Source of the DNA: a bacterium
Lineage (GTDB): Bacteria; Oederibacteriota; CAKKQC01
Direction: 5' to 3'
Assembly (NCBI GenBank): GCA_919901855.1
Contig: CAKKQC010000038.1
Span: forward strand, 1-64,000
Length of the DNA: 64,000 bases
Shown: in pieces, positions 8,341 to 49,352 of the stretch
How the letters are laid out: each line of letters starts with the position of its first letter
How positions within the stretch are numbered: position 1 is the stretch's first letter
Position numbers and translations under genes: made by a program
Notes under the pieces: model-generated
What the model was told of the DNA's origin: nothing
The model's input: the letters and a program-made list of their open reading frames with translations, nothing else
Databases searched by the model: none

Positions 8341-9189
8341 ATGACGGGGAAGACCATCGTGGTGACCGGAGCGAGCTCCGGGGTCGGCCAGGCGACGGCA
8401 CGTGAGCTGGCGCTCTTGGGGGCGCGCGTCGTCATGATCAACCGGGGCGGGCCGAAGGCGGACGCCACCCTCAAGGAACTGCAAAAGGCGCTCGGGCCCG
8501 ACCGGGTCGAGATGCTGACCGGGGACCTCTCCTCCCAGACTTCCGTCCGGGAGGTGGCGGCGAAGTTCCTGGAGTCGCACGACCGGCTGGACGTCCTGGT
8601 CAACAACGCCGGCATGATATTCCCGTCCCGCGAAGTCACGTTCGACGGTCTTGAGCGGACGTTCGCGTTGAACCACCTCGGGTACTTCCTCCTGACGGAA
8701 CTCCTCCTCGACCTCCTCAAGAAGAGCGCGCCCGCCCGGATCGTGAACGTCGCGTCCGAGGCCCATCGCATGGTCAAGGGGATGAACTTCGACGACCTCC
8801 AGTCGGCGAAGTCGTACCACCCGTGGAACGCCTACGGGCAGTCGAAGCTGGCGAACATCCTGTTCACCCGGGAGCTGGCCCGGCGGCTCGAGGGGACCGG
8901 GGTCACGGCGAACAGCCTCCACCCCGGGTTCGTGAGTACCGGTTTCGGGCGAGACCTGACCGGGATGCACCGGTTCGTCCTGGGGCTCCTGCGGCCCTTC
9001 GCCATGATCTCGCCCCAGCAGGGCGCTCGCACGCCGGTCTATCTCGCCTCGTCGCCCCAGGTGGAGGGTCTGTCGGGGCGGTACTACATCAAGCGCCGGC
9101 CCGCCTCGCCGTCGCCGGCGGCGCGGGATGATGCGGCCGCGCGGCGCCTCTGGGAGGTCAGCGTCCAGCTCACCCGCCCGATCGTCTAG
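8341..9189 (+). CDS. Short-chain dehydrogenase/reductase, retinol dehydrogenase-like
   Basis: 282 residues of the SDR superfamily. The nucleotide-binding motif TGASSGVG is at residues 9-16, NNAG at about 96-99, the active-site serine in IVNVASEAHR and the catalytic YGQSK near residue 161. The order, length and the LNHLGYFLLTELLLDLL block resemble eukaryote-like RDH/WWOX reductases, which commonly use NADP; this subgroup acts on varied aldehydes and ketones, and the true substrate is unknown. A strong AAGGAGG (8324-8330) sits about 10 bases before the ATG. It diverges from the GH2/NIF3 operon and converges on the GH94 gene with 12 bases between stops, so it is a single-gene unit. Confidence 0.88.
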   Translation: MTGKTIVVTGASSGVGQATARELALLGARVVMINRGGPKADATLKELQKALGPDRVEMLTGDLSSQTSVREVAAKFLESHDRLDVLVNNAGMIFPSREVTFDGLERTFALNHLGYFLLTELLLDLLKKSAPARIVNVASEAHRMVKGMNFDDLQSAKSYHPWNAYGQSKLANILFTRELARRLEGTGVTANSLHPGFVSTGFGRDLTGMHRFVLGLLRPFAMISPQQGARTPVYLASSPQVEGLSGRYYIKRRPASPSPAARDDAAARRLWEVSVQLTRPIV

Positions 9190-9201
9190 CCTCACGGGAG
9201 G

Positions 9202-11640: not shown

Positions 11641-11662
11641 CGTGAATTCCTGCCCACAAGGG

Positions 11663-11668
11663 TATCAT
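11663..11668 (+). promoter_or_regulatory. -10 element, leaderless
   Basis: TATCAT followed by exactly 7 bases and the ATG at 11676. The alternative ATG at 11667 overlaps the hexamer itself and is rejected as a start. Confidence 0.55.
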
Positions 11669-11675
11669 GGCGGGG

Positions 11676-12617
11676 ATGGAGAGGATGACCGGACTGTACC
11701 TGGGCGTGGACGGGGGAGGCAGCAAGACCGCGGGCGTGCTCGCGGAGGCGTCGGGCCAGGTCCTGGCGAGGGTCCGGCTGGGCGGGTCCGCGATCCTGGC
11801 GCAGATGCCGCCGCGCTCGCGGGAGGCGCTCGCGGGGACCGTGCGCTCGCTCTGCCGGCAGGCCGGGGTGCGCCCGGGGGACATCACGCGGGCGGGGGTC
11901 GGGCTCAACGGCATCGACTTCGGGTGCGAGTTTCCGGGCCAGCTCCGGCAGGTTTCCGCCGCGCTCGGGATCCCGGCGCGCAGGATCATCCTCGTCAACG
12001 ACGCGATCCCGGCGCTCTGGGGCGCGACCGACGAGCCCGCGGCGGCACTCATCCAGCACGGCTCCGGGTGGACGGCGGCGTGGCGGCGGCGACCCGGCGG
12101 CGAGCGCCTCTTCGACCACCTCGCGGCCGGGCATCCCTTCGACATCAGGTACGAGGTCCTGCCGCTCGTTTCCCGCATGCTCGACGGGCGGGCGGAGCGC
12201 ACGGCGCTCGCCGACCGGGTGCTCGGGTATTTCCGGGTGCCGGCCCGCCGCTGGCCCGAGGCGGTCTTCCGCGGGGCCCTGCCGTGGTCCCGGCAGAAGC
12301 TCATCCCGACCCTGATCTGGCGGGCGTATCTGGCCGGAGACCGCGGAGCGCTATGGCTTGCCCGCCGCGCGGCCGCGGACTACGCGGCCGCGGCGTGCGC
12401 CATGATCCGGAAGACCGGTTCCCCGCGCGCGTTCGTCGGGCTCGGCGGGGGGGTCATCAACGGCGCACCGGAACGTTTCCGGCGGCTCGTTGCCCGGCTG
12501 GTTCACGAACGATTCCCGCGCGCGCCGGTGGGCCGTCCGGCGCGGCCGCCCGAGATCGGGGCGGCGGTGATGGCCATGTCTACCGGCCGCCCGGGGGTTC
12601 TCCGCCCGAGAGAGTGA
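11676..12617 (+). CDS. BadF/BadG/BcrA/BcrD-type ATPase, N-acetylglucosamine kinase-like
   Basis: 313 residues of the ASKHA fold. The phosphate-1 motif LYLGVDGGGSKTAGVLAE is at the extreme N-terminus, with AGVGLNGIDF, ILVNDAIPALWG and ALIQHGSGWTAAW (phosphate-2 and adenosine regions) following, and VGLGGGVINGAPERF near the C-terminus. Bacterial relatives include glucosamine and N-acetylglucosamine kinases as well as the ATPase activators of benzoyl-CoA reductase. The glycan context and the absence of a cysteine-ligated iron-sulphur site favour a sugar kinase. The start at 11676 is preferred because TATCAT lies 7 bases upstream. The 3' end overlaps the convergent PorV-like gene by 38 bases. Confidence 0.82.
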   Translation: MERMTGLYLGVDGGGSKTAGVLAEASGQVLARVRLGGSAILAQMPPRSREALAGTVRSLCRQAGVRPGDITRAGVGLNGIDFGCEFPGQLRQVSAALGIPARRIILVNDAIPALWGATDEPAAALIQHGSGWTAAWRRRPGGERLFDHLAAGHPFDIRYEVLPLVSRMLDGRAERTALADRVLGYFRVPARRWPEAVFRGALPWSRQKLIPTLIWRAYLAGDRGALWLARRAAADYAAAACAMIRKTGSPRAFVGLGGGVINGAPERFRRLVARLVHERFPRAPVGRPARPPEIGAAVMAMSTGRPGVLRPRE

Positions 12618-13701
12618 CCTCGATCTCGGCCGCCTCGGTGTCGAACGACTGCCCCGTCGCGGGATCCACGGGCACCACTCTGTAGATGTAGCGCCCGGGA
12701 GTCCCGGTCAGTGCGATCAAGGGCTCCGCGGCCGGCCGTTCCGTCACCATGCTCCAGCGCTGATCCGCGGCCGGCTTCCTGTAGACGAAGTACGCGGCCG
12801 CCCGGCCGGTCCAGCGGAGCACGGGGACTCCACTCTCCTGCGCGACCTCGAGGTTCCGGATCAGGGGAACGTGCCGGCTGACGAACCGGGCCGAGAGTTC
12901 GAACCGCTGGGATGAACCCAGGTCGCCGGAGGACACGCTCGCGTAGTCCACGCGGAAGGCGACGCCGGGGGCGATCGAGGCCGGGGTGCGAAGCCCCACC
13001 CCGAAGGTCGGGCCGGCCGTCTGGCCCGTTCTCCAGCCGCCGCGCAGGCTTACGAGGTCGAACGCCGTGAGTTCGAGCCCGGCGTTCGTTCCGAAGGGAG
13101 CGTCCCGGCCGAGCCCCAGGTCCGCGGCCGCGACCCCCTTGAGGTCCGACCCGAGGTCCCGCCGCAGGCTGGTGCCCAGCACCCAGCGCACGGGAAGAGG
13201 CCGGCCCGCCCCCGCGCCAGCGGCCTCGCCTGCGTTGTCCATGAGCACACCGGCCCGCAGTCCCTCGACCGGGAGGTCCGCGAGCGCGCCGAGCGAGATC
13301 CCGATTCCGGCGAGCGACCCCCGGCTCAACTGCTGGTTGACGAACTTGAGGCTCCCCCCGGCCATGACCTGCCGGAAGCCGAGGGCGGGCCGCAGGGACG
13401 TGCCCCAGCCGGCCGTCAGGTAGAGGTCGCGGGCCGTCGTGGACCCCGCCGGTGCGCCCGGGAGCGAGTCCGGGCGCTCGGGGAACCTCGGAAGATCTCC
13501 GTAGTCTAGTGTGGCGACCCCGATTGCCAGGGTGCCGAGCGCGCCGAAGGGTTGAGCGTACCCGAGCATCTCGTAGCTCGTGTCGACGAGGTACTGCGTG
13601 TGCAGCGCGCTGATCTCGGCCGCCGGGAGTCCCGCCAACCCGGCGGGGTTCCACTCGAGCGCGTTGAGATCGTCCGCGAGCCCGGTGAACGCGCAGCCCA
13701 T
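12580..13701 (-). CDS. PorV/PorQ-like outer-membrane beta-barrel protein
   Basis: 373 residues from the first ATG. The opening MGCAFTGLADDLNALEWNPAGLAGLP matches the N-terminal signature of mature PorV/UPF0164 proteins (GMGGAFTALADDxxAxYWNPAGL), FadL-like barrels that in Bacteroidetes anchor type IX substrates. Alternating glycine-rich strands follow, and residues about 285-370 form an Ig-like tail. In this family a signal peptide precedes the signature. The upstream in-frame sequence (13702-13821) does encode one (VRLQGFLVAVAVAAPAAAG), but no ATG, GTG or TTG occurs before the next stop at 13867-13869. The real start is therefore unresolved. The upstream neighbour, a secreted repeat protein, ends just inside this extension, so the two are probably co-transcribed and functionally linked. 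Confidence 0.8.
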   Translation of the reverse strand: MGCAFTGLADDLNALEWNPAGLAGLPAAEISALHTQYLVDTSYEMLGYAQPFGALGTLAIGVATLDYGDLPRFPERPDSLPGAPAGSTTARDLYLTAGWGTSLRPALGFRQVMAGGSLKFVNQQLSRGSLAGIGISLGALADLPVEGLRAGVLMDNAGEAAGAGAGRPLPVRWVLGTSLRRDLGSDLKGVAAADLGLGRDAPFGTNAGLELTAFDLVSLRGGWRTGQTAGPTFGVGLRTPASIAPGVAFRVDYASVSSGDLGSSQRFELSARFVSRHVPLIRNLEVAQESGVPVLRWTGRAAAYFVYRKPAADQRWSMVTERPAAEPLIALTGTPGRYIYRVVPVDPATGQSFDTEAAEIEVTLSGGEPPGGR

Positions 13702-20631: not shown

Positions 20632-20637
20632 TATCAT
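20632..20637 (+). promoter_or_regulatory. -10 element, leaderless
   Basis: TATCAT with 6 bases (GGGGCC) before the ATG at 20644. The spacer contains no ribosome binding site spaced for this start. Confidence 0.5.
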
Positions 20638-20643
20638 GGGGCC

Positions 20644-21432
20644 ATGCTCTGGGAAGAACTGACTGCGCCGCGGTTCCGGAAGGCCGTCCGGGAGTCCCGG
20701 GGCGTCTGCCTGGTCCCGATCGGGGTAATCGAGAAGCACGGCGAGCATCTGCCGCTGGGCACCGACCTCTACGAGGGCCGGCACGTGGCGATCGAGGCCG
20801 CGAAGCGGGAGCCCGTCGTCGTGTTCCCGCCGTACTTCTTCGGGCAGATTCACGAGGCCCGGCACCAGCCCGGCGCGATCGCGGTCGGCGGGAGGCTGCT
20901 TCTGGACCTCCTCTTCGAGGTGTGCGCCGAGATTTCGCGCAACGGGATGAAGAAGATCATTCTCCTGAACGCGCACGGGGGTAACAACGATTTCCTCGGG
21001 TTCTTCGCCCAGCTCGCGCTCGAGCGGGAGCTCGATTACTCCCTGTACCTGCCGGGGCTGGGCGGGCGGATGACCGAAGCCGAGCGGAAGCTCTTCACCG
21101 ACAAGTACGACGGCCACGCGGGCGAGGGCGAGACGGGCATGATGCTCGTGATCCGGCCCAATCTCGTCAAGCTCGGCGCCGACATCCCGTCGCGGGGCCG
21201 GCCGAAGCGGGGCCTCAAGCACCTGCACGGGGCGACGAACGGATTCTGGTGGTACTCGCTGCACCCCGACCACTACGCGGGGACTGCCACGCTGGGCACC
21301 CCCGCCAAGGGCCGGGTCATGATCGAGAGCTGGGTGCGCGACGTGGCCCGGCTCATCCGGTCCGTCAAGGGGGACAAGATCGTCCCGCGGCTCGCGCGCG
21401 AGTTCCACCGGAGGGCCCGCAATCCGGTCTGA
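20644..21432 (+). CDS. Creatininase-family amidohydrolase
   Basis: 262 residues of the creatininase/FAPy-deformylase family. The metal-binding block PIGVIEKHGEHLPLGTD gives E30, H32 and D41, matching E34, H36 and D45 of Pseudomonas creatininase. NAHGGNND (about 118-125) and DGHAGEGETGMML (about 157-169) supply the remaining metal ligands and catalytic glutamate. Members hydrolyse cyclic amides (creatinine, pterin or flavin-precursor formamides, mycofactocin precursor). Nothing adjacent suggests mycofactocin or deazaflavin synthesis, so the substrate is unknown. The start is supported by TATCAT 6 bases upstream. The next gene begins 36 bases downstream and may be co-transcribed. Confidence 0.88.
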   Translation: MLWEELTAPRFRKAVRESRGVCLVPIGVIEKHGEHLPLGTDLYEGRHVAIEAAKREPVVVFPPYFFGQIHEARHQPGAIAVGGRLLLDLLFEVCAEISRNGMKKIILLNAHGGNNDFLGFFAQLALERELDYSLYLPGLGGRMTEAERKLFTDKYDGHAGEGETGMMLVIRPNLVKLGADIPSRGRPKRGLKHLHGATNGFWWYSLHPDHYAGTATLGTPAKGRVMIESWVRDVARLIRSVKGDKIVPRLAREFHRRARNPV

Positions 21433-27812: not shown

Positions 27813-29762
27813 CTACCTGTTGTTTACCGTGGTCACGGGCCAGTCGTCGGTGCGGAACGGGGAGGCGGGGAGCCCGATCCGGCCCCCGAGGTTGCACACC
27901 GGGTTCGGCCCCCACGCGTAGCGCACGGCGGCGGGATGGGGGACCTCCGGCGACTCGACGACGACGGTGTCCCCGTCGATCCGGGCCGCGGCCTTCACGA
28001 ATTTGCGGTCGTCGCCCGCGATGCCGAACCCCGCGATGTCGGTGCCGTCCCTGCTCATGAGCCCCGTCCCCACGTGCGAGAACCTGATCCGGATCCTCGC
28101 GCCCTCGATGAGCATCCCCGAGTACCGGGGGCCCGAATACTCGGCGTTCCGCTCGTAGGCGCGGACGAAGGCCGTGAGGGCCAGCCGCTCGCCGACCTCG
28201 CGCTTGCGCTTCGGGTGGATGTCCGCCGCGTCGCCGAGGTCGATCGCGCAGACGTAGTCGGCTCCGGCCAAGTCCCCGGCCGCGAACGCCTGCGCCTCGC
28301 GCAGTTCGGCCCAGTCGTTGTCCACCGGCGCGTCGTTGGGTGCCTGCCAGCCCGGCAACTGCACGATATAGAACGGGAAGTCGCCCTGGCCCCACGCCGC
28401 CCTCCATCCCCGGATCATGGCCGGGAGCAGGGACCGGTACTGCCAGGCGCGTCCCGCGTTCCCCTCGCCCTGGTACCAGAGCGCCCCGCGGATGGCGTAG
28501 GGAATCAGGGGCGCGAGTTCGCCGTTGAAGAGCCCCGACGGAACTTCAGGATACGCGAAGGGGACGTGTGTCGCGGTGACGATGAGCCCGGTGACCGCGC
28601 CCAGCGCGATCGGCTTCTGCGTGCCCCAGTCCGGCTGCTTCGTCTCCGTGAAGGTGAAGGTCACCTCCTGCCAATCCGCCTTCGCCCGGAACTCGGGCGT
28701 CTCGTGGAACGCCCAGTCCCAGACCTCGGGCTGCCGGAAGGACAGATGAAACCGGCCCTGGCCGCGCACCCGGAGCCGGATCGCGGCGAACCGCGAGAGG
28801 TCGGCGCCCCGGTCCGTTTCGCCGAGGGTCCTCATCTCGCTCACCGCGCTCGACATGCCAACGGTGCCCGTGAAGAGGCCGCGCCGGCCGCCCTTCGTCG
28901 TGACTTCGAACTTCGCCGCCGAGATTCCGGAGGCCCAGGGCGATTCCCACTTGCCGGGCAGCCCGGGTCCCGAGAACCGGTCGAGGGGGACGCGCTCGGA
29001 GCCGTCGGCGGGGATCAGGTCGATCCGGTCGATCTCGAGCTTGAACGGGAGCGTCGAGCGGGCGAGGTCCGGGTCCTGGCGGACACGTTCCTTCCACCGC
29101 GCCAGGATCGGCGCGCAAGACGGCTCTCCGGCCAGCGACTTCTGGTCGGTCCAGACCTCGGCGCACGTGCCGCCCCAGGCGGCCTGGATCACGCCGACGG
29201 GCACCTGCAGTTCCTGCCGGAGCTGGCGCGCGAAGTAGTAGGCGACGGCGGAGAACGAGCCGGCGCTCTCGGGGGTCGCGGCCCGCCACGCCACGGGGAC
29301 GTCGCTCAGGGGCTGGGCGGACACGACATCGGGCATCCGGAGGAGGTGCAGGTTGGGGTCCTCGGCGGCCTTCGCCGCTTCCGCGCCGCCCTCGGAGGCG
29401 TTCACGGTCACTCCCATGTTCGACTGCCCCGAGCAGAGCCAGACCTCGCCCGCGAGAAGTCCGCGCGACGTGGCCGTCTCCCTGCCGGACTTGACCACGA
29501 GTTCGCCGACGACTCCGGAGGGGATCGGGGCGAAGACGACCTTCCACCGGCCGGAGGCGCCCGCCACGGCCTTCCTCTCCTGATCCAGGAGCCGGACGGT
29601 CACGCGCGCCCCGGGCTGCGCCCAGCCCCAGACCGGGAGGGGGAGTCCCTGCTGGAGCACGGCGCCGTCGCCGAACACGGCGGGGAGCTTCAGCGCCGCG
29701 GCGGGCGATTGGGAGGCCATCAGAAGCGCGGCGGCGAGGAGGGCGCGGTTGGCGTGCGACAT
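27813..29762 (-). CDS. Exported sialate O-acetylesterase-like SGNH esterase
   Basis: 649 residues with a signal peptide (NRALLAAALLMASQSPAAALKLP) and the SASA domain split by a beta-rich insert. The nucleophile lies in VWLCSGQSNMGVTV (about residues 86-99). Catalytic Asp and His are in DAADIHPKRKREVGERLAL at about 535-553. VGVIQAAWGGTCAEVW and RGALWYQGEGNA are further family blocks. The insert (about 240-400) resembles the jelly-roll segments seen in bacterial acetyl esterases that remove O-acetyl groups from xylan or mannan rather than sialic acid. TATAAT lies 6 bases before the ATG at 29762; the long upstream extension has no signal or homology. With GH5, GH2 and GH36 in the window, polysaccharide deacetylation is the likely role. 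Confidence 0.88.
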   Translation of the reverse strand: MSHANRALLAAALLMASQSPAAALKLPAVFGDGAVLQQGLPLPVWGWAQPGARVTVRLLDQERKAVAGASGRWKVVFAPIPSGVVGELVVKSGRETATSRGLLAGEVWLCSGQSNMGVTVNASEGGAEAAKAAEDPNLHLLRMPDVVSAQPLSDVPVAWRAATPESAGSFSAVAYYFARQLRQELQVPVGVIQAAWGGTCAEVWTDQKSLAGEPSCAPILARWKERVRQDPDLARSTLPFKLEIDRIDLIPADGSERVPLDRFSGPGLPGKWESPWASGISAAKFEVTTKGGRRGLFTGTVGMSSAVSEMRTLGETDRGADLSRFAAIRLRVRGQGRFHLSFRQPEVWDWAFHETPEFRAKADWQEVTFTFTETKQPDWGTQKPIALGAVTGLIVTATHVPFAYPEVPSGLFNGELAPLIPYAIRGALWYQGEGNAGRAWQYRSLLPAMIRGWRAAWGQGDFPFYIVQLPGWQAPNDAPVDNDWAELREAQAFAAGDLAGADYVCAIDLGDAADIHPKRKREVGERLALTAFVRAYERNAEYSGPRYSGMLIEGARIRIRFSHVGTGLMSRDGTDIAGFGIAGDDRKFVKAAARIDGDTVVVESPEVPHPAAVRYAWGPNPVCNLGGRIGLPASPFRTDDWPVTTVNNR

Positions 29763-29768
29763 GGCCCC

Positions 29769-29774
29769 ATTATA
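29769..29774 (-). promoter_or_regulatory. Consensus -10 element, leaderless
   Basis: A perfect TATAAT on the minus strand followed by 6 bases (GGGGCC) and the ATG at 29762. It is one of the two clearest leaderless sites in the window. Confidence 0.65.
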
Positions 29775-40823: not shown

Positions 40824-40829
40824 TATAAT
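40824..40829 (+). promoter_or_regulatory. Consensus -10 element, leaderless
   Basis: A perfect TATAAT, 7 bases (CCACGTG), then ATG 40837. With 29769-29774 it is the best example of the start-proximal promoter geometry in this window. Confidence 0.65.
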
Positions 40830-40836
40830 CCACGTG

Positions 40837-41727
40837 ATGAAACTGAAGATGCCCATCCTCCTCGACACCGACATCGGGAACGACATCGACGACGCGGTCG
40901 CGCTGGCCTACCTGCTCCGCCAGCCGCGGTGCGAACTGGCGGGAGTGACCTGTGTCACCGGTGACGTCGGACAGCGTTGCGCGCTGACCGACGCCGTCTG
41001 CCGGGCCGCGGGCCGGACCGACATCCCCATTCACGCGGGCGCACGCGACGTGCTCCTGCACGGGCCGGGTCAGCCGACGGTGCCCCAGTACGAGGTGCTG
41101 CGGTCGCGGCCCCATCGCGCGGATTGGCCGGCGGGCACGGCCGTGGAGTTCCTCCGCAGGACGATCCGCGAGCGTCCGGGCGAGATCACGCTGCTCACGA
41201 TCGGGCCGCTGACGAACATCGCCCTCCTCGGCGCGATCGATCCGGAGGTGCTGGTCCTGTTGAAGGAGATGGTGGCGATGGCCGGCGTCTTCTACCCGCA
41301 CGAGTGCGACTCGGAGTGGAACTGCCGCGTGGACCCCGTGGCGACGGCCATGGTCCTGAAGACGACCGCGCGGTTGAAGGTCCCGGTCCGGCTGATCGGA
41401 CTGGATGTCACGATGAAGTGCCGCCTCGGCCCCGACGAGGTGAAGCGGCGGTTCACCCCGTCGCCCCTGGACTTCGTGCTCGAGCTGGCGTCCGTGTGGT
41501 TCCGGGGCGCCAGGGAGATGACCTTCCACGATCCGCTGGCGGCCGCCGTGGTTTTCGAACCGGATCTCTGCGGGTACGAGTCCGGCCTGGTCACGGGCGA
41601 TCCCGGACCCGGCGCCGCGGAGGGCCGCACGCCGTTCACGGCGGGCCCGGGGACGCACACGGTGGCGAAGACCGTGGACCCGGAGGGGTTCTTCAAGGAG
41701 TATTTCTCAGTCTTCGGCGTACAATAG
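40837..41727 (+). CDS. Inosine-uridine-type nucleoside hydrolase
   Basis: 296 residues of the IU-nucleoside hydrolase family, which cleave the N-glycosidic bond of ribonucleosides. The calcium-binding N-terminal cluster LLDTDIGNDIDDAVAL is at residues 8-23, LLTIGPLTNIALL at about 119-131, and the catalytic His-Asp in MTFHDPLAAAV at about 227-237. There is no signal peptide, so it acts in the cytoplasm. It leads a run of four plus-strand genes (GH127, M14-like peptidase, ADP-ribosylglycohydrolase) with gaps of 7, 3 and 4 bases. TATAAT 7 bases upstream selects the ATG at 40837; an in-frame methionine four codons later is less likely. Confidence 0.9.
   Translation: MKLKMPILLDTDIGNDIDDAVALAYLLRQPRCELAGVTCVTGDVGQRCALTDAVCRAAGRTDIPIHAGARDVLLHGPGQPTVPQYEVLRSRPHRADWPAGTAVEFLRRTIRERPGEITLLTIGPLTNIALLGAIDPEVLVLLKEMVAMAGVFYPHECDSEWNCRVDPVATAMVLKTTARLKVPVRLIGLDVTMKCRLGPDEVKRRFTPSPLDFVLELASVWFRGAREMTFHDPLAAAVVFEPDLCGYESGLVTGDPGPGAAEGRTPFTAGPGTHTVAKTVDPEGFFKEYFSVFGVQ
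41720..41725 (+). promoter_or_regulatory. Possible internal -10 element
   Basis: TACAAT at the very end of the nucleoside hydrolase gene lies 9 bases before ATG 41735. It is 2-3 bases further than the other sites, so it may be an internal promoter or a chance match. Confidence 0.3.
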
Positions 41728-41734
41728 CGGCGCG

Positions 41735-43630
41735 ATGGCCACCGGCCGCCCCGAAAGCGTAGTCGTCGACACCGCGCAGAGCCCGCACGCGCGGGTCCGG
41801 CCCGTCCCGGTTTCCTCCGTCATGTTCGAGGACGCGTTCTGGGCGCCTCGGCTGGCCCTCAACCGGACGACGGTCATCCCGGCCCAGTGGCGGCACTGCG
41901 AGGAGACCGGCCGGGTCGACAACTTCCGTATCGCGTCCGGCCGCAAGCAGGGCGAATTCCGCGGGATCTTCTTCAACGATTCCGACGTCTACAAGTGGCT
42001 CGAGGCGGCGGCGTGGGCGCTGGCGTCCGGCCCCGATCCCGTGATCGAGGGTTTCGTCGCGACCGCGGCGGACGAGATCGCGGCGGCCCAACAGCCGGAC
42101 GGCTATCTCAACACGTACTTCATGTCCGGCCGGGCGAAGGACCGGTGGACGAACCTCAAGGACATGCACGAGCTCTACTGCGCCGGGCACTTCATCCAGG
42201 CCGCGGTAGCGCACCACCGCGTGACCGGGTCCGAGCAGCTCCTCGACACCGGGCGCCGGCTCGGGGACTGCATCGACCGCGTCTTCGGCCCCGAGTCCTC
42301 GGGCAAACGTCACGGCACCTGCGGCCATCCCGAGATCGAGACCGCGCTCGTCGAGCTTCACCGGGCCACGGGCGAGCGCCGGTATCTCGACCTCGCGAAG
42401 TTCTTCGTGGACATCCGGGGGCGCGGCGTCGTGGGCGGGGGCGAATACCACCAGGATCACGCGCCGTTCCGGGATCTTTCGGCCGTGGTGGGGCACGCGG
42501 TGCGGTGCGGCTACCTGGTCACGGGCGCGGCGGATGTCGCGCTCGAGACCGGGGACCCGGGGATCCGGGCCGCGCTGGACCGGCTCTGGGAGAACATGAC
42601 CACGCGACGCGCCTACGTGACGGGCGGCGTGGGGGCGCGGTACGAGGGCGAGGCGTTCGGCGGGGACTACGAGCTGCCCGACGACCGCGCCTACGCCGAG
42701 ACCTGCGCCGCGATCTCGATGGTGATGTGGGCGTGGCGGATGCTCGCGCTGACGGGCGAGGCCGTGTACGCGGACCGCATGGAATGGACGCTCCTCAACG
42801 CCGTCCTGCCCGGCATCTCGCTGGACGGAACCGGCTACTTCTACCCCAACCCGCTCGAGAGCGACGGGACCTACCGGCGCGAGCCGTGGTTCGGGTGCGC
42901 GTGCTGTCCGCCCAACGTGGCCCGCGTGATTGCCTCGCTGCCCGGATACGCGTACGGCGTCTCGGACCGGGCGGCCTGGGTCCACCTGTACGCGGCCGGC
43001 CGCGCGACGCTGGAGATTCCGGGCGCGGGGCCGGTCGTGATCGTCCAGCGGACGGAGTACCCTTGGGACGGGGCGGTGCGGCTCGAGGTGTCGGGCGAGG
43101 GCGATTTCGAGCTGCGGCTCCGGATCCCGGGCTGGTGCGAGGGAGGCGCGGCCGTGTTCGTCAACGGGTCGCCATTGGGCGCCCCCGCGGTGCCCGGGAG
43201 TTACGCCGTTATCCGGCGGTCGTGGCGCCGGGGCGACGTCGTGACGCTCACGCTCTCGATGCCCGCGGTCCGGCTCGAAGCGCATCCGCATCTCGCGGGA
43301 CATGAGACCAAAGTGGCGCTCGCGCGCGGACCTCTTGTCTACTGCGCGGAGGCCGCGGGCCCCGGGGACATCGACCCGCGGGACCTGGTCCTGCCGGACG
43401 GGGCGGCGATCGGCGCGCGCTTCGATCCCGGGCTGCTCGGCGGCGTGGCCGTGCTCGAGGCCGCGGCGCAGGCGGCCCGGCCGGACCCCGGATGGGGCGG
43501 GCGGCTCTACCGGCCCGTGCCCGGCGCGTCCGCGGCCGCCCGGGGCCCCGGACGGATGTGTGCGGTCCCGTACTTCGCCTGGGGCAACCGCGCGGCCGGG
43601 CGCATGCGCGTCTGGCTGAGGCGGGGCTGA
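41735..43630 (+). CDS. GH127-family beta-L-arabinofuranosidase-like protein
   Basis: 631 residues of the DUF1680/GH127 family, an alpha6/alpha6 barrel plus beta-sandwich. The four functional positions known from HypBA1 are all present: acid/base E306 (RYEGEAFGG), zinc ligands E322 and C324 (AYAETCAAIS), and the nucleophile/zinc pair C390-C391 in GCACCPPNVAR. Spacing between E306 and E322 (16 residues) equals that in HypBA1. The characterised activity is hydrolysis of beta-L-arabinofuranosides, for example on hydroxyproline-rich plant glycoproteins. No signal peptide is present. The gene starts 7 bases after the nucleoside hydrolase stop and ends 3 bases before the peptidase. Confidence 0.9.
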   Translation: MATGRPESVVVDTAQSPHARVRPVPVSSVMFEDAFWAPRLALNRTTVIPAQWRHCEETGRVDNFRIASGRKQGEFRGIFFNDSDVYKWLEAAAWALASGPDPVIEGFVATAADEIAAAQQPDGYLNTYFMSGRAKDRWTNLKDMHELYCAGHFIQAAVAHHRVTGSEQLLDTGRRLGDCIDRVFGPESSGKRHGTCGHPEIETALVELHRATGERRYLDLAKFFVDIRGRGVVGGGEYHQDHAPFRDLSAVVGHAVRCGYLVTGAADVALETGDPGIRAALDRLWENMTTRRAYVTGGVGARYEGEAFGGDYELPDDRAYAETCAAISMVMWAWRMLALTGEAVYADRMEWTLLNAVLPGISLDGTGYFYPNPLESDGTYRREPWFGCACCPPNVARVIASLPGYAYGVSDRAAWVHLYAAGRATLEIPGAGPVVIVQRTEYPWDGAVRLEVSGEGDFELRLRIPGWCEGGAAVFVNGSPLGAPAVPGSYAVIRRSWRRGDVVTLTLSMPAVRLEAHPHLAGHETKVALARGPLVYCAEAAGPGDIDPRDLVLPDGAAIGARFDPGLLGGVAVLEAAAQAARPDPGWGGRLYRPVPGASAAARGPGRMCAVPYFAWGNRAAGRMRVWLRRG

Positions 43631-43633
43631 CCG

Positions 43634-44785
43634 GTGCCGCTCCACGTCGAAACCGGCTTCCCGATGGCGAACGCGACCGCGATCGGCGTGGGTGACCGCG
43701 ACGGCCACCCCGAGGTCGCGTTCACGCCCGACCCCCACGGCGGGCCGGAGGCCCTCTGGTTCTACTTCCGGCTCGTGCGCGAGGGTCCCGAGCCGCGCGC
43801 CGGGGATCTCGTCCGCCTCGTCCTCAAGCATCCCGAGAACATGCTCGGCGGCGCGTGCCCGGAGAAGATCCGGCCGGTCGTGCGCGCGGCGGCCGGCGAC
43901 TGGGAGCGCCTGCCGGAGGGGCGCCGCGAGGAGCTTCCCGACGGCCGGTTGCGCATGGTCTGGATGATCCCCGCGCCCGCGGACTCGCTCGAGGTGGCGG
44001 CCTGCTACCCGTACGGCCACCCGGACCTCGTCGACCTCGTTCGCGAGACTCGCTGGTACTGGCGTGTCGCCACGATCGGGGTCTCGCAGGGCGGCCGCGG
44101 AATCGTCAGGATCGCGAACGATCCCGGGACGCCGGGGAGCACGCGCCCGGGCTTCTACCTGGTCGCGCGCCAGCACTCGGGGGAGACGACGGGATCGTGG
44201 GTGCTCGACGGGTTTCTTCGATACGTGGCCGCCCATCCGGAGCGCGCGCCGCTCGTGTGGGCGGTGCCGTTCGCGAACATCGACGGGGTCGAGCAGGGCG
44301 ACTACGGAAAGGACAACTTCCCGTACGACCTCAACCGGGCGTGGGGCGATCCGCCGATGCGGCACGAGACGGTCGTGATCCAGCGCGACCTCGCCCGCTG
44401 GAAGGCGCGGTGCCGGCCGGAGCTGGGACTCGACTTCCACTCGCCGGGGGCGTGCGAGGCCGAGGGCGTCTACGCCTTCCTTCCGGATCCCGGCAAGTTC
44501 CCGCTCGAGCACCGGGAGGCCGAGCGATGGACCGCGCTCCTGGCGGGGGCCCTCGTCCCCGAGTTCGCGGCGGCCCAGGTCGAGCAGGTGCCGTACTACA
44601 CCTCCCGCTGGACCACGCCGGACTTCACGACGTACTGCTTCGACAAGCTCCAGGTGCCGGGGCTCACGGTCGAGACGCCCTACGCCCTGTGCAATACCAC
44701 CGTCATGACCCGGGAGCTCTACCGGCAGGTGGGGTCCCGCATCGCGGCCGCCGTCTGCCGCGCCGTCGTCGCGGGCGGGGGCTGA
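43634..44785 (+). CDS. M14-like zinc carboxypeptidase family protein
   Basis: 383 residues from a GTG start. The first 130 residues are a beta-sandwich like the N-terminal domain of cytosolic carboxypeptidase-type M14 proteins (EALWFYFRLVREG). The zinc ligands are H161 and E164 in ARQHSGETTGSW and H249 in LGLDFHSPGA. YDLNRAWGDP supplies the substrate-binding Asn-Arg, and E327 in LTVETPY is the expected catalytic glutamate. All M14 residues are therefore retained. There is no signal peptide. It would remove C-terminal residues or deacylate a small peptide or amide; its place among three glycosidases suggests the operon handles a glycosylated peptide or amide. Confidence 0.82.
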   Translation: MPLHVETGFPMANATAIGVGDRDGHPEVAFTPDPHGGPEALWFYFRLVREGPEPRAGDLVRLVLKHPENMLGGACPEKIRPVVRAAAGDWERLPEGRREELPDGRLRMVWMIPAPADSLEVAACYPYGHPDLVDLVRETRWYWRVATIGVSQGGRGIVRIANDPGTPGSTRPGFYLVARQHSGETTGSWVLDGFLRYVAAHPERAPLVWAVPFANIDGVEQGDYGKDNFPYDLNRAWGDPPMRHETVVIQRDLARWKARCRPELGLDFHSPGACEAEGVYAFLPDPGKFPLEHREAERWTALLAGALVPEFAAAQVEQVPYYTSRWTTPDFTTYCFDKLQVPGLTVETPYALCNTTVMTRELYRQVGSRIAAAVCRAVVAGGG

Positions 44786-44789
44786 CGCC

Positions 44790-46877
44790 GTGCCTATCCC
44801 AAACGATTACGCGGAGCGCGTCTACGCCGGGGTGCTCGGCAAGATCATCGGGGTCTACCTCGGCCGGCCGATCGAGGGCTGGTCGTACCAGCGCATCGTC
44901 AAGGAGATCGGTGACGTCGCCTACTACGTGCACGGGAAGATCGGGGTCCCCCTGATCGTGACCGACGACGACATCTCGGGGACGTTCACGTTCCTGCGCG
45001 CCCTGCCCGACCACGGGAACCGGCGCGACATCACGGCGGAGCAGATCGGGAACACGTGGATGAACTACCTCATCGAGAACCGCACGATCCTGTGGTGGGG
45101 CGGGATGGGGAACTCGACCGAGCACACGGCGTACCTGCGGCTGAAGGCCGGGATCAAGGCCCCCGGGAGCGGGTCCATCGCGCTCAACGGGAAGGTCGTG
45201 GCGGAGCAGATCGGGGCCCAGATCTTCATCGACGGCTGGGCGATGGTGGCGCCGGGCGACCCGAAACTCGCGGCCGAGCTGGCGGCGAAGGCGGCCACCG
45301 TGTCGCACGACGGGGAAGCGAAGTACGGGGCCCAACTGCTTGCCGCCATGGAGGCGATGGCCTTCGTGGAGACCGACATCGAGAAACTCACGGACGCGGG
45401 CCTCGCCGTGATCCCGAAGGACTGCCTGATCGCGGCGCTCGTGGCGGACATCCGGGCGTGGAAGAAGAAGGAGCCGGACTGGCGCAAGACGCGCGACCAC
45501 ATCGAATCGGAATGGGGCTACGACAGGTACGCCGGCAACTGCCACATGATCCCGAATCACGCCCTCCTGCACCTCGCCTTTCAGTACTGCGACGGAGACT
45601 TCTCGAAGGCGTTGTTGATCGTGAACACGGCGGGGTGGGACACGGACTGCAACTCGGCCAACGTCGGGTGCCTCATGGGGATCCGGGGCGGGCTCGCGGG
45701 GCTGGAGGGGAAGCTCGATTGGCGCGGGCCGGTCGCCGACCGGATGTACCTGCCGACCGCGGACGGGGGCCGCGCGATCACCGATGCGCTGACCGAGGCG
45801 TATCACATCGTGAATGCCGGCCGCGCGCTGGCGGGTCAGGCGCCGGACGTCCCCAAGGGCGGTGCGCGGTTCCACTTCAGTCTCCCGGGGGCCGTCCAGG
45901 GCTGGCGTCCGATGGATCCGTCCGTGGACGAGGCCGCGGTCGAGAACGTCGCCCGGGCGGGGAGCCGGGGCCTGGCCATCCGGTTCAAGGGGCTGACCGG
46001 CGGGCAGGCGGCCCGGGTCGTGACCGACACCTTCATTCCCCCCGAGGCGTCGAAGATCGGCGGGTACGGCCTGATCGCGAGCCCGACCCTCTACCCGGGC
46101 CAGGTCGTGCGGGCGAAGCTCGACGCGGATGCATACAGCGGCGCGCCCGTGACGGCGAGGCTGTTCGTGCGCGCCTACGGGGCGAAGGACGAGCCGGTCA
46201 TGGTCCATGGGCCGGATGTCATTCTGGCGCCGGGTGCTGAGGCGGAGACCGAATGGCGGGTGCCCGACCTCGCGGGCGCCCCCGTGTTCCAGGTCGGCCT
46301 CGAGCTCGCGGGGGCCGGCGCGGGAACGGTTCACCTCCTCTCGCTGGGCTGGGAGGGCGCTCCGGACGTCACGCTCGGCCGGCCGAAGGACGAGGGGAAG
46401 ATGTGGCTGAAGGCCTGGGTGGACGGCGCCGACCACTTCGAGCGCGACTGGGTCCTCGACGTCCGGCTCATGCAGGACCACGGCCGGGGGCTCGTGAGCC
46501 AGGGCACGCGCGAGTGGTGCGACTACCGGGCGGGCGTCACGCTGGTGCCGCACCTCATGGACGCCTGCGGGCTTGCCGTCCGTGTCCAGGGGATGCGCCG
46601 GTACTACGCGCTTGTGCTCACCCGCGAGTCGAAGGTGCGTCTCGTCAAGATGCTCGACCACGAGCGGCTCCTCGCCGAGGCCCCGTGCCCGGTCGAGTTC
46701 GGCGGGACCTATGAGCTGGCGCTGGAGGCGAAGGGCGACCGGCTCCTGGCGTTTGTCGGCGGGGTCCAGGTCTTCGACGCCCGCGACCCCGAGCGCTCGT
46801 TCAACGGCGGGGGGGTCGGGCTGATCGTCGAGGTCGGCCGGCTCCACGCCGGCCCGGTCACCATCCGGCCGGCTTAG
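44790..46877 (+). CDS. ADP-ribosylglycohydrolase-family enzyme with C-terminal LamG-like domain
   Basis: 695 residues from GTG 44790. The N-terminal 340 residues are the all-helical ARH/DraG fold. The magnesium site is built from T58-D59-D60-D61 (LIVTDDDISGTF) and D284/D286 (NTAGWDTDCNSANVGCLMG), both canonical. ARH enzymes release ADP-ribose from proteins or hydrolyse related ribosyl bonds; many environmental homologues in glycan operons have unknown furanoside substrates. Residues about 360-695 form beta-sandwich regions ending in a LamG/3-keto-disaccharide-hydrolase-like fold (YRAGVTLVPHLMDACGLAVR, GGGVGLIVEVGRLHAGPVTIR). This appended domain is unusual for DraG and fits a carbohydrate substrate. 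It is the last gene of the operon, and a toxin-antitoxin pair converges on it. Confidence 0.85.
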   Translation: MPIPNDYAERVYAGVLGKIIGVYLGRPIEGWSYQRIVKEIGDVAYYVHGKIGVPLIVTDDDISGTFTFLRALPDHGNRRDITAEQIGNTWMNYLIENRTILWWGGMGNSTEHTAYLRLKAGIKAPGSGSIALNGKVVAEQIGAQIFIDGWAMVAPGDPKLAAELAAKAATVSHDGEAKYGAQLLAAMEAMAFVETDIEKLTDAGLAVIPKDCLIAALVADIRAWKKKEPDWRKTRDHIESEWGYDRYAGNCHMIPNHALLHLAFQYCDGDFSKALLIVNTAGWDTDCNSANVGCLMGIRGGLAGLEGKLDWRGPVADRMYLPTADGGRAITDALTEAYHIVNAGRALAGQAPDVPKGGARFHFSLPGAVQGWRPMDPSVDEAAVENVARAGSRGLAIRFKGLTGGQAARVVTDTFIPPEASKIGGYGLIASPTLYPGQVVRAKLDADAYSGAPVTARLFVRAYGAKDEPVMVHGPDVILAPGAEAETEWRVPDLAGAPVFQVGLELAGAGAGTVHLLSLGWEGAPDVTLGRPKDEGKMWLKAWVDGADHFERDWVLDVRLMQDHGRGLVSQGTREWCDYRAGVTLVPHLMDACGLAVRVQGMRRYYALVLTRESKVRLVKMLDHERLLAEAPCPVEFGGTYELALEAKGDRLLAFVGGVQVFDARDPERSFNGGGVGLIVEVGRLHAGPVTIRPA

Positions 46878-46895: not shown

Positions 46896-47183
46896 CTAGC
46901 CAGCCCGCTTCCTGATCGACTCGGTTAGCACCTCGTAGATTTCGCGGCGAGGCCCGATGCCGCGGACCACGATCATGCCACGTTCCTCCCCGTAGACGAT
47001 CCGGTACGGCTTGACGTGATAGGTCCGCAGTCCTGTGAGTTCCAACTCCAGCGCCTTGCCGTCTTCGGGATGCTCCCCGATGTGCCGAAGGGCGGCACGG
47101 ATGCGCCGCTTGTGTTCGGGATGGAGTCCGGAGAGGTACGTCCGGACGTCGGCCGGGATATCAACCCTCCGACGCGCGTTCAC
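46896..47183 (-). CDS. RelE/ParE-family toxin
   Basis: 95 residues of the RelE/ParE superfamily. The two N-terminal helices (ADVRTYLSGLHPEHKRRIRAALRHIGEHPEDG) and the strand block LTGLRTYHVKPYRIVYGEERGMIVVRGIGPRREIY follow the standard fold; the arginine and lysine in HVKPYRIVY are in positions used by RelE for mRNA cleavage. It probably cuts mRNA on the ribosome when free. The gene overlaps the antitoxin stop by 4 bases (ATGA), and the order antitoxin-then-toxin is usual. Base composition is less GC-rich than the flanking genes, which suggests recent arrival. Confidence 0.88.
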   Translation of the reverse strand: MNARRRVDIPADVRTYLSGLHPEHKRRIRAALRHIGEHPEDGKALELELTGLRTYHVKPYRIVYGEERGMIVVRGIGPRREIYEVLTESIRKRAG

Positions 47184-47443
47184 TCCGGCAGGGCTTCCTC
47201 AATCGTGACGCCCCGCCCACCGCGGGCGTAGAACTTGCCGCTCCTCCTGATCTGGCGCATGAGTGCGGGATCGGACAGGATCTCGATGGTCTCTTTGAAC
47301 GATTCATACTCCTCGATGTTGAGGATGATCGCGGCGGGCTTCCCGTTCTTCGTGACGACGATCTCATCTGCGCGATCCTGGACCCCGGAGACCAGCCGGG
47401 GGAGATGGGTCTTCACGTCGGTCAGCGACAGCGTCTTCGTCAC
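47180..47443 (-). CDS. Phd/YefM-family antitoxin
   Basis: 87 residues. The N-terminal Phd/YefM DNA-binding fold shows TLSLTDVKTHLPRLVSGVQDRADEIVVTKNGKPAAIILNIEEYES, where the SLTDVKTHL helix and the NGKPAAIIL strand are diagnostic. The C-terminal 35 residues, rich in charged residues, should wrap the toxin. It begins with GTG (47443) after an AGGAGG Shine-Dalgarno. A 16-bp palindrome 15 bases upstream is the likely autoregulatory operator. Confidence 0.88.
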   Translation of the reverse strand: MTKTLSLTDVKTHLPRLVSGVQDRADEIVVTKNGKPAAIILNIEEYESFKETIEILSDPALMRQIRRSGKFYARGGRGVTIEEALPE

Positions 47444-47525: not shown

Positions 47526-48482
47526 TCATATCCCGGCGAGGCGGCGGGCCTGGGCGAAGGACTCGAGCTTCCCGAAGCCGCCGGGGCCGGAGACGTTCAG
47601 GGCCCCCGCCGCGTTGCCGAGCCGGAGGGCGTCGCGAAGATCGAAGCCCCGGAGGATCCCGGCGAGGAACCCGCCGTCGAAGCAGTCGCCGGCGCCGGTG
47701 GCGTCCACGACCTTGACCTTGAATGCGGGGAGCTCGACGGGAGAGCCGCCGCGTGGCAATGCGTAACACCCCTTCGACCCGCGCTTTAGGACCACGACCT
47801 TCCGTACCCCGGCGGCGAAGGCGCGCTCGGCAATCGTGCGCGGATCACGGGAGCCGAAGGTCTCGCCGGCCTCCTCGATGCTCGGGAGATAGTAGTCCAC
47901 GAACGGGAGGCACATCTTCGCCAGCCGCCACCGGCGGCGCGGGTCCCAGCACGAGTCGAAGCTCGTGGTCAATCCGAGCTTCTTTGCCCGCGCCAGCAGG
48001 CGCCGCGCGGGTGGCCCGTCGAGCCGGGGGAGCAGGAAGAATCCGGAGAGGTGCAGAATCCGGTGCTTCTTCAGGAGTGAGTCCGGGAACATCCGGTCCG
48101 TGATCGCGCCGCTCGCGCCTTCGGTGTGCAGGAAGCTCCGCTCGCCGTCGGGGGTCACGAGCACGACCGTGGACGAGGACTGGAACCCGCCGACCACTTG
48201 CGCGCCCCCCAGGTCGACCCGGTTCTCGCGGAGGCGGCGGAGCAGGAACTCGCCGAACCCGTCCCGGCCCACGGCGGTGCCGATCGTGGGCTTCATTCCG
48301 AGCCGGGCGAGGGCGATGCCGGAGTTGACCGCGCACCCGCCGGTGAATAGCCCGATCGAGTCGATGAGCCCGAGCTTGCCCTTGCCCGGAATCGCGCGGA
48401 TCGGCCGCGCGGTCACGTCCGCGACCGCGTTCCCGACGCACAGGACATCCCGGGTGGCGCCGCCGTGCATGTATTCCCGCAT
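47526..48482 (-). CDS. PfkB-family carbohydrate kinase
   Basis: 318 residues of the ribokinase/PfkB superfamily. The first signature GLFTGGCAVNSGIALARLGMKP is at about 36-57, and the second, VKVVDATGAGDCFDGGFLAG, at about 254-273, includes the catalytic aspartate in GAGD. Substrates in the family range from ribose, fructose and adenosine to tagatose 6-phosphate and deoxygluconate. ATG 48482 is chosen because TATCAT lies 6 bases upstream on the minus strand; the much longer frame reaching 49307 is antisense to the aldolase gene. It shares a 45-base divergent promoter region with that aldolase-like gene, which suggests the two act on one sugar. Confidence 0.9.
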   Translation of the reverse strand: MREYMHGGATRDVLCVGNAVADVTARPIRAIPGKGKLGLIDSIGLFTGGCAVNSGIALARLGMKPTIGTAVGRDGFGEFLLRRLRENRVDLGGAQVVGGFQSSSTVVLVTPDGERSFLHTEGASGAITDRMFPDSLLKKHRILHLSGFFLLPRLDGPPARRLLARAKKLGLTTSFDSCWDPRRRWRLAKMCLPFVDYYLPSIEEAGETFGSRDPRTIAERAFAAGVRKVVVLKRGSKGCYALPRGGSPVELPAFKVKVVDATGAGDCFDGGFLAGILRGFDLRDALRLGNAAGALNVSGPGGFGKLESFAQARRLAGI

Positions 48483-48487
48483 GGGCC

Positions 48488-48494
48488 TATGATA
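48488..48494. promoter_or_regulatory. Bidirectional -10 core between kinase and aldolase-like genes
   Basis: The seven bases TATGATA read as TATGAT on the plus strand and TATCAT on the minus strand. On the minus side the kinase ATG is 6 bases away (leaderless). On the plus side transcription would begin near 48500 and the aldolase-like ATG 48528 is preceded by GGAGGG. Confidence 0.5.
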
Positions 48495-48527
48495 GCGGAA
48501 GATCATGAGCGTCCAGGGAGGGCTCGC

Positions 48528-49352
48528 ATGAGTATTCGTTACCGGCTGAACCGCATGTTCTTCACCTCCGGCCGTTGCCTGACGGTCGCGGCCGACCACG
48601 GCATCCACGGGGACATGGAGATGCTCCGGGGGCTGGAGGAGATGAAGACCATCATCCCCTCGATCATTTCGGCCGGCGCCGACGCCATCCACCTTACGCC
48701 CGGGACGGCGCACATTCTCCAGGAGGTCGCGGGCCGGACGAAGCCCGCGCTCGTCCTGCGCGCGGACTCCACCAACGTCTACGGCCCCCGCCCCTCGACT
48801 CCGTACTGCCGGCTCATCGGCGACGCCGTGGATGAGGGCCTGCGGTTCGACGCGGCCTGCATCATCGTGAACCTCCTCGACCTGCCCGACCAGCCGGGGC
48901 TCAAGGCCGAGTGCATCGACAACATCAACAAGCTGCGGTCGGAGTGCGACCGGACCGCGATGCCGCTCATGGTGATGCCGCTGCCGATGAAGCTCGGGAG
49001 CGCGGGCGGGTACGTGGCCGACAACGCGCTCGACCGCCTCATCCCCCTCGCGCGGATGGCCGCCGAGCTGGGCGCCGACGTCATCGAGTCCGACCCGCCC
49101 GAGCACCTCTCCGATTTCCACAAGGTCGTGAAGGCGGCCGGGGTGCCCGTGCTCGCGCGCGGCGGCTCGAAGGTGCCCGACGACGAGCTCATGAAGCGGA
49201 CGCAGGAGGTCGTCAAGCAGGGCGCATCGGGGATCGTCTACGGTCGCAACGTCATCCAGCACGCGGACCCGCGGAAGATGACCGTGGCCCTGCTGGCCCT
49301 CATCCACGCGAACGCCTCGCCCGAGCAGGCGCTCAAGATCCTGAAGGGCTGA
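48528..49352 (+). CDS. DhnA/LacD-type aldolase-like protein lacking the usual Schiff-base lysine
   Basis: 274 residues with the TIM-barrel pattern of the DeoC/LacD/DhnA class I aldolases: LTVAADHGIHGDMEMLRGLEEM at the start, AIHLTPGTAHILQ, and VLARGGSKVPDDELMKRTQEVVKQGASGIVYGRNVIQH at the end, matching phosphate-binding strands 7 and 8. On strand 6 the family has AD(x)xKTxY with the catalytic lysine; here it reads GADVIESDPPEHLSDF. The lysine is thus replaced, so either another residue serves or the enzyme is not a Schiff-base aldolase. GGAGGG lies upstream of the ATG. It is followed after 8 bases by the ceramidase-like gene. Confidence 0.82.
   Translation: MSIRYRLNRMFFTSGRCLTVAADHGIHGDMEMLRGLEEMKTIIPSIISAGADAIHLTPGTAHILQEVAGRTKPALVLRADSTNVYGPRPSTPYCRLIGDAVDEGLRFDAACIIVNLLDLPDQPGLKAECIDNINKLRSECDRTAMPLMVMPLPMKLGSAGGYVADNALDRLIPLARMAAELGADVIESDPPEHLSDFHKVVKAAGVPVLARGGSKVPDDELMKRTQEVVKQGASGIVYGRNVIQHADPRKMTVALLALIHANASPEQALKILKG

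What the first reader, a model, noticed from the sequence alone, without database searches (positions are those of the whole stretch)
40824..46877. Four-gene furanoside-directed operon: nucleoside hydrolase, GH127, M14-like peptidase, ADP-ribosylglycohydrolase
Three different glycosidase families that cut furanosyl bonds (ribosyl N-glycosides, beta-L-arabinofuranosides, ADP-ribosyl bonds), all with intact active sites, are packed with a complete M14-type metallopeptidase within gaps of 3-7 bases behind one consensus promoter. No member has a signal peptide, so they act on something imported. A glycosylated peptide such as hydroxyproline-linked arabinofuranosides, or a ribosyl-amide, would need exactly such activities. 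I do not know this combination as a described system.
Basis: partly seen in the sequence, partly recalled or inferred. Interest (0 to 1): 0.7.

Follow-up and report, generated by a model that had tools for sequence, protein, structure and literature searches.

The report
Cytoplasmic sugar-hydrolase gene cluster
Four closely packed genes of an uncultured bacterium encode enzymes that probably cut small imported sugar compounds; the packing is real, but the four-gene combination was found in no other genome examined and recurs elsewhere only in parts, so it looks like a local assembly of known scavenging enzymes rather than a new conserved system.

Summary
In detail: nucleoside hydrolase (NH), GH127, M14 peptidase and ADP-ribosylglycohydrolase (ADPRGH) lie head to tail with gaps of 7, 3 and 4 bases; catalytic motifs are present and no signal peptide is visible. 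Around 80 M14 homologues, 51 ADPRGH, 20 NH and 16 GH127 relatives, the four-gene order never recurs. In the one held genome of the same family the locus is syntenic (M14-ADPRGH-PfkB-aldolase), but its ADPRGH is a different subtype, GH127 lies on another contig and no NH was found. The recurrent core is NH+ADPRGH, found in six operons elsewhere with sugar or nucleoside importers or ribokinases, resembling the Bacteroides ribose-utilisation (rus) locus. The 695-aa ADPRGH belongs to a widespread family with a lectin-like C-terminus that often sits behind LacI/sugar-ABC genes, so sugar or glycoside catabolism is likelier than protein de-ADP-ribosylation. GH127 relatives often follow sugar-ABC permeases too. 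The M14 enzyme has a cytosolic-carboxypeptidase (M14D) fold whose bacterial substrates are unknown. 'Furanoside-directed' is unproven: GH127 also contains 3,6-anhydrogalactosidases. Verdict: a real, lineage-specific catabolic cluster of known enzyme kinds; moderate interest, chiefly for the ADPRGH family.

The parts
40824..40829 (+). TATAAT, -10-like box 7 bases before the NH start codon; probably a leaderless promoter
   Evidence: sequence; no -35 at normal spacing; TANNAT 6-7 bases before long reading frames is enriched in about 460 kb of this genome
40837..41727 (+). nucleoside hydrolase (PF01156), subtype with the two-residue longer DTDIGNDIDDA loop
   Evidence: closest relatives found about 50% identical, in the genomes around G131
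41720..41725 (+). TACAAT, possible internal -10 box 9 bases before the GH127 start
   Evidence: sequence; not tested experimentally
41735..43630 (+). GH127 glycosidase (catalytic, middle and C-terminal domains)
   Evidence: best solved relative 4qjy, E 1e-157
43634..44785 (+). M14 metallocarboxypeptidase of the cytosolic-carboxypeptidase (M14D) fold
   Evidence: profile match to 4a37 5e-25; model pLDDT 94.6; VIA-align Z 37.4, 3.0 A over 355 residues to 4b6z
44790..46877 (+). ADP-ribosylglycohydrolase-family enzyme: catalytic domain about residues 14-305, lectin/CBM66-like C-terminal part
   Evidence: PF03747; C-terminus matches levanase CBM66 chains at 9e-6 by profile and the galactocerebrosidase lectin domain in 5 of 10 relatives; full-length relatives in many genomes
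46896..47443 (-). ParE toxin (46896-47183) and Phd/YefM antitoxin (47180-47443), between the cluster and PfkB; not thought to belong
47526..48482 (-). PfkB sugar kinase, 62% identical to the kinase at the syntenic place in G001; possibly same pathway
48525..49352 (+). DeoC/DhnA-type aldolase, 56% identical to the gene at the syntenic place in G001; possibly same pathway (start codon uncertain)

Best explanation
A lineage-specific catabolic operon of four cytoplasmic hydrolases that finish the breakdown of small sugar compounds after import. The functional core is NH plus ADPRGH: NH splits an N-ribosyl or similar bond and the ADPRGH-family enzyme, probably held to its substrate by a lectin-like C-terminal domain, splits another glycosyl bond; the freed sugar may then be phosphorylated by the neighbouring PfkB kinase and cleaved by the aldolase. 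GH127 removes another terminal sugar residue, and the M14 carboxypeptidase-fold enzyme removes an amino acid or acyl group from the same or an unrelated imported molecule. Shown here: gene order, families, folds or motifs, the importer context of relatives, the recurrent NH-ADPRGH link, and the M14-ADPRGH-PfkB-aldolase synteny with one same-family genome. Inferred: co-transcription, the substrates, the order of the steps, and that the importer is encoded elsewhere (no permease domain was found on this contig).
For: Tight co-directional packing. ADPRGH relatives (most 50-62% identical over their full length): of 51 loci, 23 are beside a sugar-ABC permease pair, 10 beside LacI, 5 beside UgpC, 4 beside NH and 4 beside PfkB. 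NH-ADPRGH pairs: L176 and L192 with LacI and sugar-ABC genes, L207 and L208 with sugar-ABC genes, L117 with a Bmp-type nucleoside importer and ribokinase, L130 with ribokinase and a ureide/sugar permease; 4 of 51 against about 0.16 expected, P about 3e-5, or 8e-4 if NH density is 2.5 times higher. GH127 relatives have a permease neighbour in 8 of 16 loci. M14 follows permeases in L035/L256, lies with a GHMP kinase in L025 and L051 and with Gfo/Idh oxidoreductases elsewhere. G001 keeps M14-ADPRGH-PfkB-aldolase.
Against: No importer or regulator gene adjoins the cluster; 14 permease domains exist, all on other contigs. NH relatives (20 loci) show only 3 permease neighbours. In the genomes listed with both, the closest NH relatives and the ADPRGH relatives do not lie together. 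No expression data or assay. Most relatives come from fragmentary metagenome assemblies, and only one other genome of the family is held. The search for ADPRGH, NH and GH127 relatives was centred on one clade (G131), so the neighbourhood counts describe that clade best.
Confidence: 0.55

Rival explanations
1. One reading: one dedicated pathway in which all four enzymes act on one imported furanoside, such as an arabinosyl-hydroxyproline peptide or a ribosyl amide.
For: Packing; GH127 HypBA1 of Bifidobacterium is the cytoplasmic step of a known system for hydroxyproline-linked beta-arabinofuranosides with an ABC importer (PMC7263609); M14 lies beside ADPRGH in both genomes of the family although the ADPRGHs are different subtypes, as if that pairing were needed.
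Against: The combination is not conserved anywhere tested; no importer adjoins; GH127 is not limited to furanosides; M14 substrate unknown.
Confidence: 0.12
2. Ribose and nucleoside scavenging as in the Bacteroides rus locus (NH, ADPRGH, ribokinase, permease), with GH127 and M14 as passengers inserted between the two core genes.
For: NH and ADPRGH flank the cluster and a PfkB kinase lies close; rus-like L130 and nucleoside-importer L117; a Bacteroides thetaiotaomicron ribokinase/TonB/NH/DMT-permease locus is listed in PMC10434189.
Against: The window's ADPRGH is of the 700-aa type found mostly with CUT1-like sugar importers; PfkB lies on the opposite strand and is shared with a genome in which no NH was found; the closest NH relatives are not near ADPRGH.
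Confidence: 0.25
3. Chance juxtaposition of four unrelated hydrolase genes in one transcription unit, with no shared physiology.
For: No recurrence of the full set; best relatives lie in unrelated loci; an internal -10-like box before GH127.
Against: NH-ADPRGH linkage above chance; M14-ADPRGH synteny in G001; the same importer type recurs next to relatives of several of the genes.
Confidence: 0.2
4. Protein or nucleic-acid de-ADP-ribosylation and tubulin-like deglutamylation (signalling or repair) rather than catabolism.
For: Family names and folds only: ADP-ribosylglycohydrolase and cytosolic carboxypeptidase.
Against: Sugar-importer context and lectin-like domain of the ADPRGH family; the neighbours are glycosidases; tested bacterial CCPs showed no or only low deglutamylase activity.
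Confidence: 0.05

Closest known systems
Bacteroides thetaiotaomicron ribose-utilisation (rus) locus: NH, ADP-ribosylglycohydrolase, ribokinases, permease (gene roles from own knowledge, Glowacki et al. 2020; that paper is not held; part of the locus is listed in PMC10434189)
   Same: NH and ADPRGH-family hydrolases encoded together with a PfkB kinase nearby
   Different: No SusC/D or permease here; ADPRGH of a longer subfamily; GH127 and M14 lie in between
LacI/CUT1-like sugar-ABC operons with NH-ADPRGH (L192, L176; L192 also GH35) in genomes around G131
   Same: Same long ADPRGH family (54-59% identical) directly after an NH of the same DTDIG loop type
   Different: Carry the importer and regulator; other glycosidase in place of GH127; no M14
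Bifidobacterium HypBA1 (GH127) system for hydroxyproline-linked beta-L-arabinofuranosides (PMC7263609)
   Same: Cytoplasmic GH127 acting on an imported oligosaccharide
   Different: Its partners are GH121, GH43 and an ABC importer; NH, ADPRGH and M14 are not described as part of it
Zobellia carrageenan locus, GH127 DagA (PMC5698469)
   Same: GH127 in a sugar-catabolic cluster that also has an aldolase
   Different: Bond is alpha-1,3-(3,6-anhydro)-D-galactosidic; sulfatases present; NH, ADPRGH and M14 not described there
Bacterial cytosolic carboxypeptidases PaCCP (4a37) and BcCCP (4b6z)
   Same: Full-length fold with N-terminal beta domain and zinc, NR and Glu motifs
   Different: About 18-20% identity; DFHSPG in place of the DIHGDE-like stretch, so the substrate pocket may differ

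Membership tests
Nucleoside hydrolase (PF01156) | Family profile above cut-off and Asp-rich N-terminal metal motif | tested here: met
   165.6 bits against 34.2; DTDIGNDIDDA and HDPLA, with a two-residue insertion relative to 6zk1
Nucleoside hydrolase (PF01156) | Hydrolyses nucleosides | not testable with these tools
   needs an enzyme assay; far below every NCBIfam equivalog cut-off listed
GH127 | Three-domain architecture and the Glu / ETC / CCPPN zinc-thiolate site | tested here: met
   PF07944, PF20736, PF20737 all above cut-off; aligned over residues 21-629 to 4qjy; motifs
GH127 beta-L-arabinofuranosidase | Bond specificity for beta-L-arabinofuranosides | not testable with these tools
   the family has several specificities
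GH127 aceric acid hydrolase (NF049879) | NCBIfam equivalog cut-off, 950 bits | tested here: not met
   485.8 bits
M14D cytosolic carboxypeptidase | N-terminal beta domain plus M14 catalytic fold with H/E/H zinc ligands, NR and Glu | tested here: met
M14D cytosolic carboxypeptidase | Deglutamylase activity | not testable with these tools
   not shown even for solved bacterial members (PMC3940198)
ADP-ribosylglycohydrolase (PF03747) | Family profile and acidic metal clusters | tested here: met
   166.9 bits against 26.2; E29, D59-D61, D284, D286 invariant in 10 relatives; Cys287 follows, where ARH enzymes usually have Thr/Ser (own knowledge, not tested)
ADP-ribosylglycohydrolase (PF03747) | Releases ADP-ribose from protein or nucleic acid | not testable with these tools
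   genomic context points to sugars instead
Bacteroides rus-type ribose-utilisation locus | NH, ADPRGH, ribokinase and a dedicated transporter in one unit | tested here: not met
   NH and ADPRGH present, PfkB nearby on the other strand, but no transporter gene adjoins; ABC permease domains only on other contigs
HypBA-type arabinofuranoside system | ABC importer adjoining the GH127 gene | tested here: not met
   no permease domain on this contig; GH121 and GH43 partners were not searched genome-wide
Conserved four-gene system NH-GH127-M14-ADPRGH | Recurs in other genomes | tested here: not met
   0 of 80 M14, 51 ADPRGH, 20 NH and 16 GH127 loci; no other genome of the genus was available

The most novel reading that the evidence does not exclude
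The long ADPRGH-family proteins are an unrecognised class of true sugar or glycoside hydrolases, with a lectin-like domain, that serve sugar importers across several phyla, and this cluster couples one of them with NH, GH127 and a carboxypeptidase-fold enzyme to dismantle one imported glycosyl-peptide or glycosyl-amide.
Probability: 0.12. Interest if true: 0.65.

Novelty: new variant of a known kind. Interest (0 to 1): 0.36.

Why it matters
Proteins named ADP-ribosylglycohydrolase are usually read as signalling or repair enzymes. Here a family of about 700 residues, found in 97 of 250 genomes of one clade and on Rhizobium, Agrobacterium, Deinococcus and Enterobacter plasmid records, often sits in sugar-import operons and carries a lectin-like domain. 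If it hydrolyses sugars, many annotations are misleading and a new glycosidase family awaits assay. The four-gene cluster is one rare arrangement of such enzymes and gives a testable partner list.

Tried and rejected
Conserved four-gene neighbourhood: rejected. ADPRGH relatives in viral contigs: none. M14 relatives on plasmids: none. Single-sequence fold of ADPRGH: mean pLDDT 40.5, not used; the fold tool takes no relatives from the genomes searched, so the C-terminal assignment rests on profile matches only. Foreign DNA or assembly chimera: not indicated by composition nor by synteny with G001. A peak of TANNAT 33 bases before start codons came from an internally repetitive protein, not promoters. 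Papers joining NH, ADPRGH and GH127 in one system: none found.
Full report
What is there. Four complete + strand genes run from 40837 to 46877 with gaps of 7, 3 and 4 bases: a nucleoside hydrolase (NH), a GH127 glycosidase, an M14 enzyme and an ADP-ribosylglycohydrolase-family enzyme (ADPRGH). High third-position GC (0.91-0.94) and tetranucleotide composition match the contig. Catalytic motifs are present in all four. The NH has a two-residue longer metal loop than the aligned solved NH, a type also seen in the NHs of L176, L192 and L130. The M14 gene is below Pfam's cut-offs but has a cytosolic-carboxypeptidase (M14D) fold: profile E 5e-25 to 4a37, model pLDDT 94.6, VIA-align Z 37.4 with 3.0 A over 355 residues to 4b6z, and Z 31-33 to CCP5.

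Promoter. A perfect TATAAT (40824-40829) lies 7 bases before the NH start codon, with no -35 box at 16-18 bases. In about 460 kb of this genome TANNAT is enriched 6-7 bases before long reading frames (19 and 31 cases; 15 at distance 9; mostly under 10 elsewhere), the mark of leaderless transcripts. So the first gene is probably leaderless. A TACAAT also precedes GH127 by 9 bases, so a second start inside the cluster is possible.

Is the set conserved? I searched from each gene. M14: 80 loci in bacterial genomes; no NH or GH127 in the fetched flanks (up to 10 kb, many contigs shorter), and ADPRGH only in L020, whose match and contig length equal those of G001:C5. G001 is the only other genome of the family in the relatives searched. 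There the order M14-ADPRGH-RidA-PfkB(-)-aldolase(+) matches the window's M14-ADPRGH-[ParE/Phd]-PfkB(-)-aldolase(+), with M14 67-68%, PfkB 62% and aldolase 56% identical, but ADPRGH only 32%, that is, a different subtype at the same place. The GH127 of G001 is on another contig and no NH was found in that 83% complete genome.

ADPRGH. Full-length relatives were found on plasmids, in M14-bearing genomes and in 97 of 250 genomes around G131, reached through an Anaerolineales record. I read 55 loci; 51 held a usable ADPRGH anchor. On the same strand within 4 kb: a sugar-ABC permease pair in 23, LacI in 10, UgpC in 5, NH in 4, PfkB in 4, another ADPRGH in 4, GH127 in 0, M14 in 0. Annotated examples are Deinococcus, Agrobacterium, Enterobacter, Sinorhizobium and Rhizobium records. 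The C-terminal end matches the CBM66 chains of levanase (E 9e-6; family name from own knowledge) and, in 5 of 10 members, the lectin domain of galactocerebrosidase. I conclude, as inference, that this family handles imported sugars or glycosides.

NH with ADPRGH. Besides the window the pair recurs in L176 and L192 (LacI-binding protein-permease-permease-NH-ADPRGH; in L192 followed by a GH35, Pfam-checked), L207 and L208 (NH-binding protein-permeases-ADPRGH-ADPRGH), L117 (ribokinase-NH-Bmp-ABC-permeases-NH-ADPRGH-amidohydrolase) and L130 (ribokinase-ureide/sugar permease-NH-ADPRGH). Four of 51 loci against about 0.16 expected for the 40 genomes with NH counts gives P about 3e-5, or 8e-4 with 2.5 times the NH density. 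L130 resembles the Bacteroides rus locus (own knowledge; the paper is not held; a partial listing is in PMC10434189). Yet the window NH's own closest relatives (20 loci) have no ADPRGH, GH127 or M14 nearby.

GH127. Relatives up to 56% identical have a sugar-ABC permease on the same strand within 4 kb in 8 of 16 loci. In one genome (G189, L250) a GH127 lies about 5 kb from an ADPRGH and a PfkB, on the opposite strand; in another (G302, L251) about 12 kb away. Known GH127 activities include beta-L-arabinofuranosidase (PMC7263609) and alpha-1,3-(3,6-anhydro)-D-galactosidase (PMC5698469), so family membership does not prove a furanoside substrate.

M14. In other genomes it follows permeases (L035/L256), or lies with a GHMP kinase and sugar-acid genes (L025, L051) or Gfo/Idh oxidoreductases. 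Bacterial members of this fold have no known substrate; a solved one showed only low deglutamylase activity (PMC3940198).

Conclusion. The cluster is real and operon-like. The best account is a lineage-specific set of cytoplasmic hydrolases for imported sugar compounds, built around the recurrent NH-ADPRGH pair, with the importer elsewhere: 14 permease domains, none on this contig. Whether one molecule needs all four enzymes is open; conservation gives no support for it. The part with wider interest is the long ADPRGH family.

Limits. Metagenome assemblies are fragmentary; one same-family genome; searches for NH, GH127 and ADPRGH relatives were deep only in the window's phylum, on plasmids and around G131; neighbour calls used single-sequence searches with a chosen query set and can miss distant homologues; reading frames were picked mechanically.

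Noticed in passing
own genome, e.g. window 20632-20646 (+), 29760-29774 (-), 48480-48494 (-), 40824-40839 (+): Many genes have a TANNAT box 6-7 bases before the start codon, suggesting that leaderless transcripts are common in this lineage.
   Followed up: partly
window 46896-47443 (-): ParE-like toxin and Phd/YefM antitoxin pair between the cluster and the PfkB gene, where G001 has a RidA gene instead.
   Followed up: partly
L016 (G001:C5) 1143-2378 and 2370-2813: The same-family genome carries a different ADPRGH subtype plus RidA behind the same M14 gene: apparently a non-orthologous exchange at a syntenic place.
   Followed up: partly
L258 and L259 (own contig C38, 84001-124000): Long repetitive proteins with many VEAYDPATNTWTTKAPMP-like repeats, resembling kelch repeats; they produced a false promoter signal.
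   Followed up: no
L134 (CP103578.1, Enterobacter hormaechei record) 8966-13425: LacI, long ADPRGH and a solute-binding protein between chromosome-type genes (fur, glnS, nag) on a record labelled plasmid; looks like a small sugar-use cassette.
   Followed up: no
L207 and L208: Two long ADPRGH genes in tandem behind NH and sugar-ABC genes, in two genomes.
   Followed up: no
L250 (G189:C33): Long ADPRGH and PfkB on one strand and GH127 with a permease on the other, about 5 kb apart: the only close GH127-ADPRGH pair seen outside the window.
   Followed up: no
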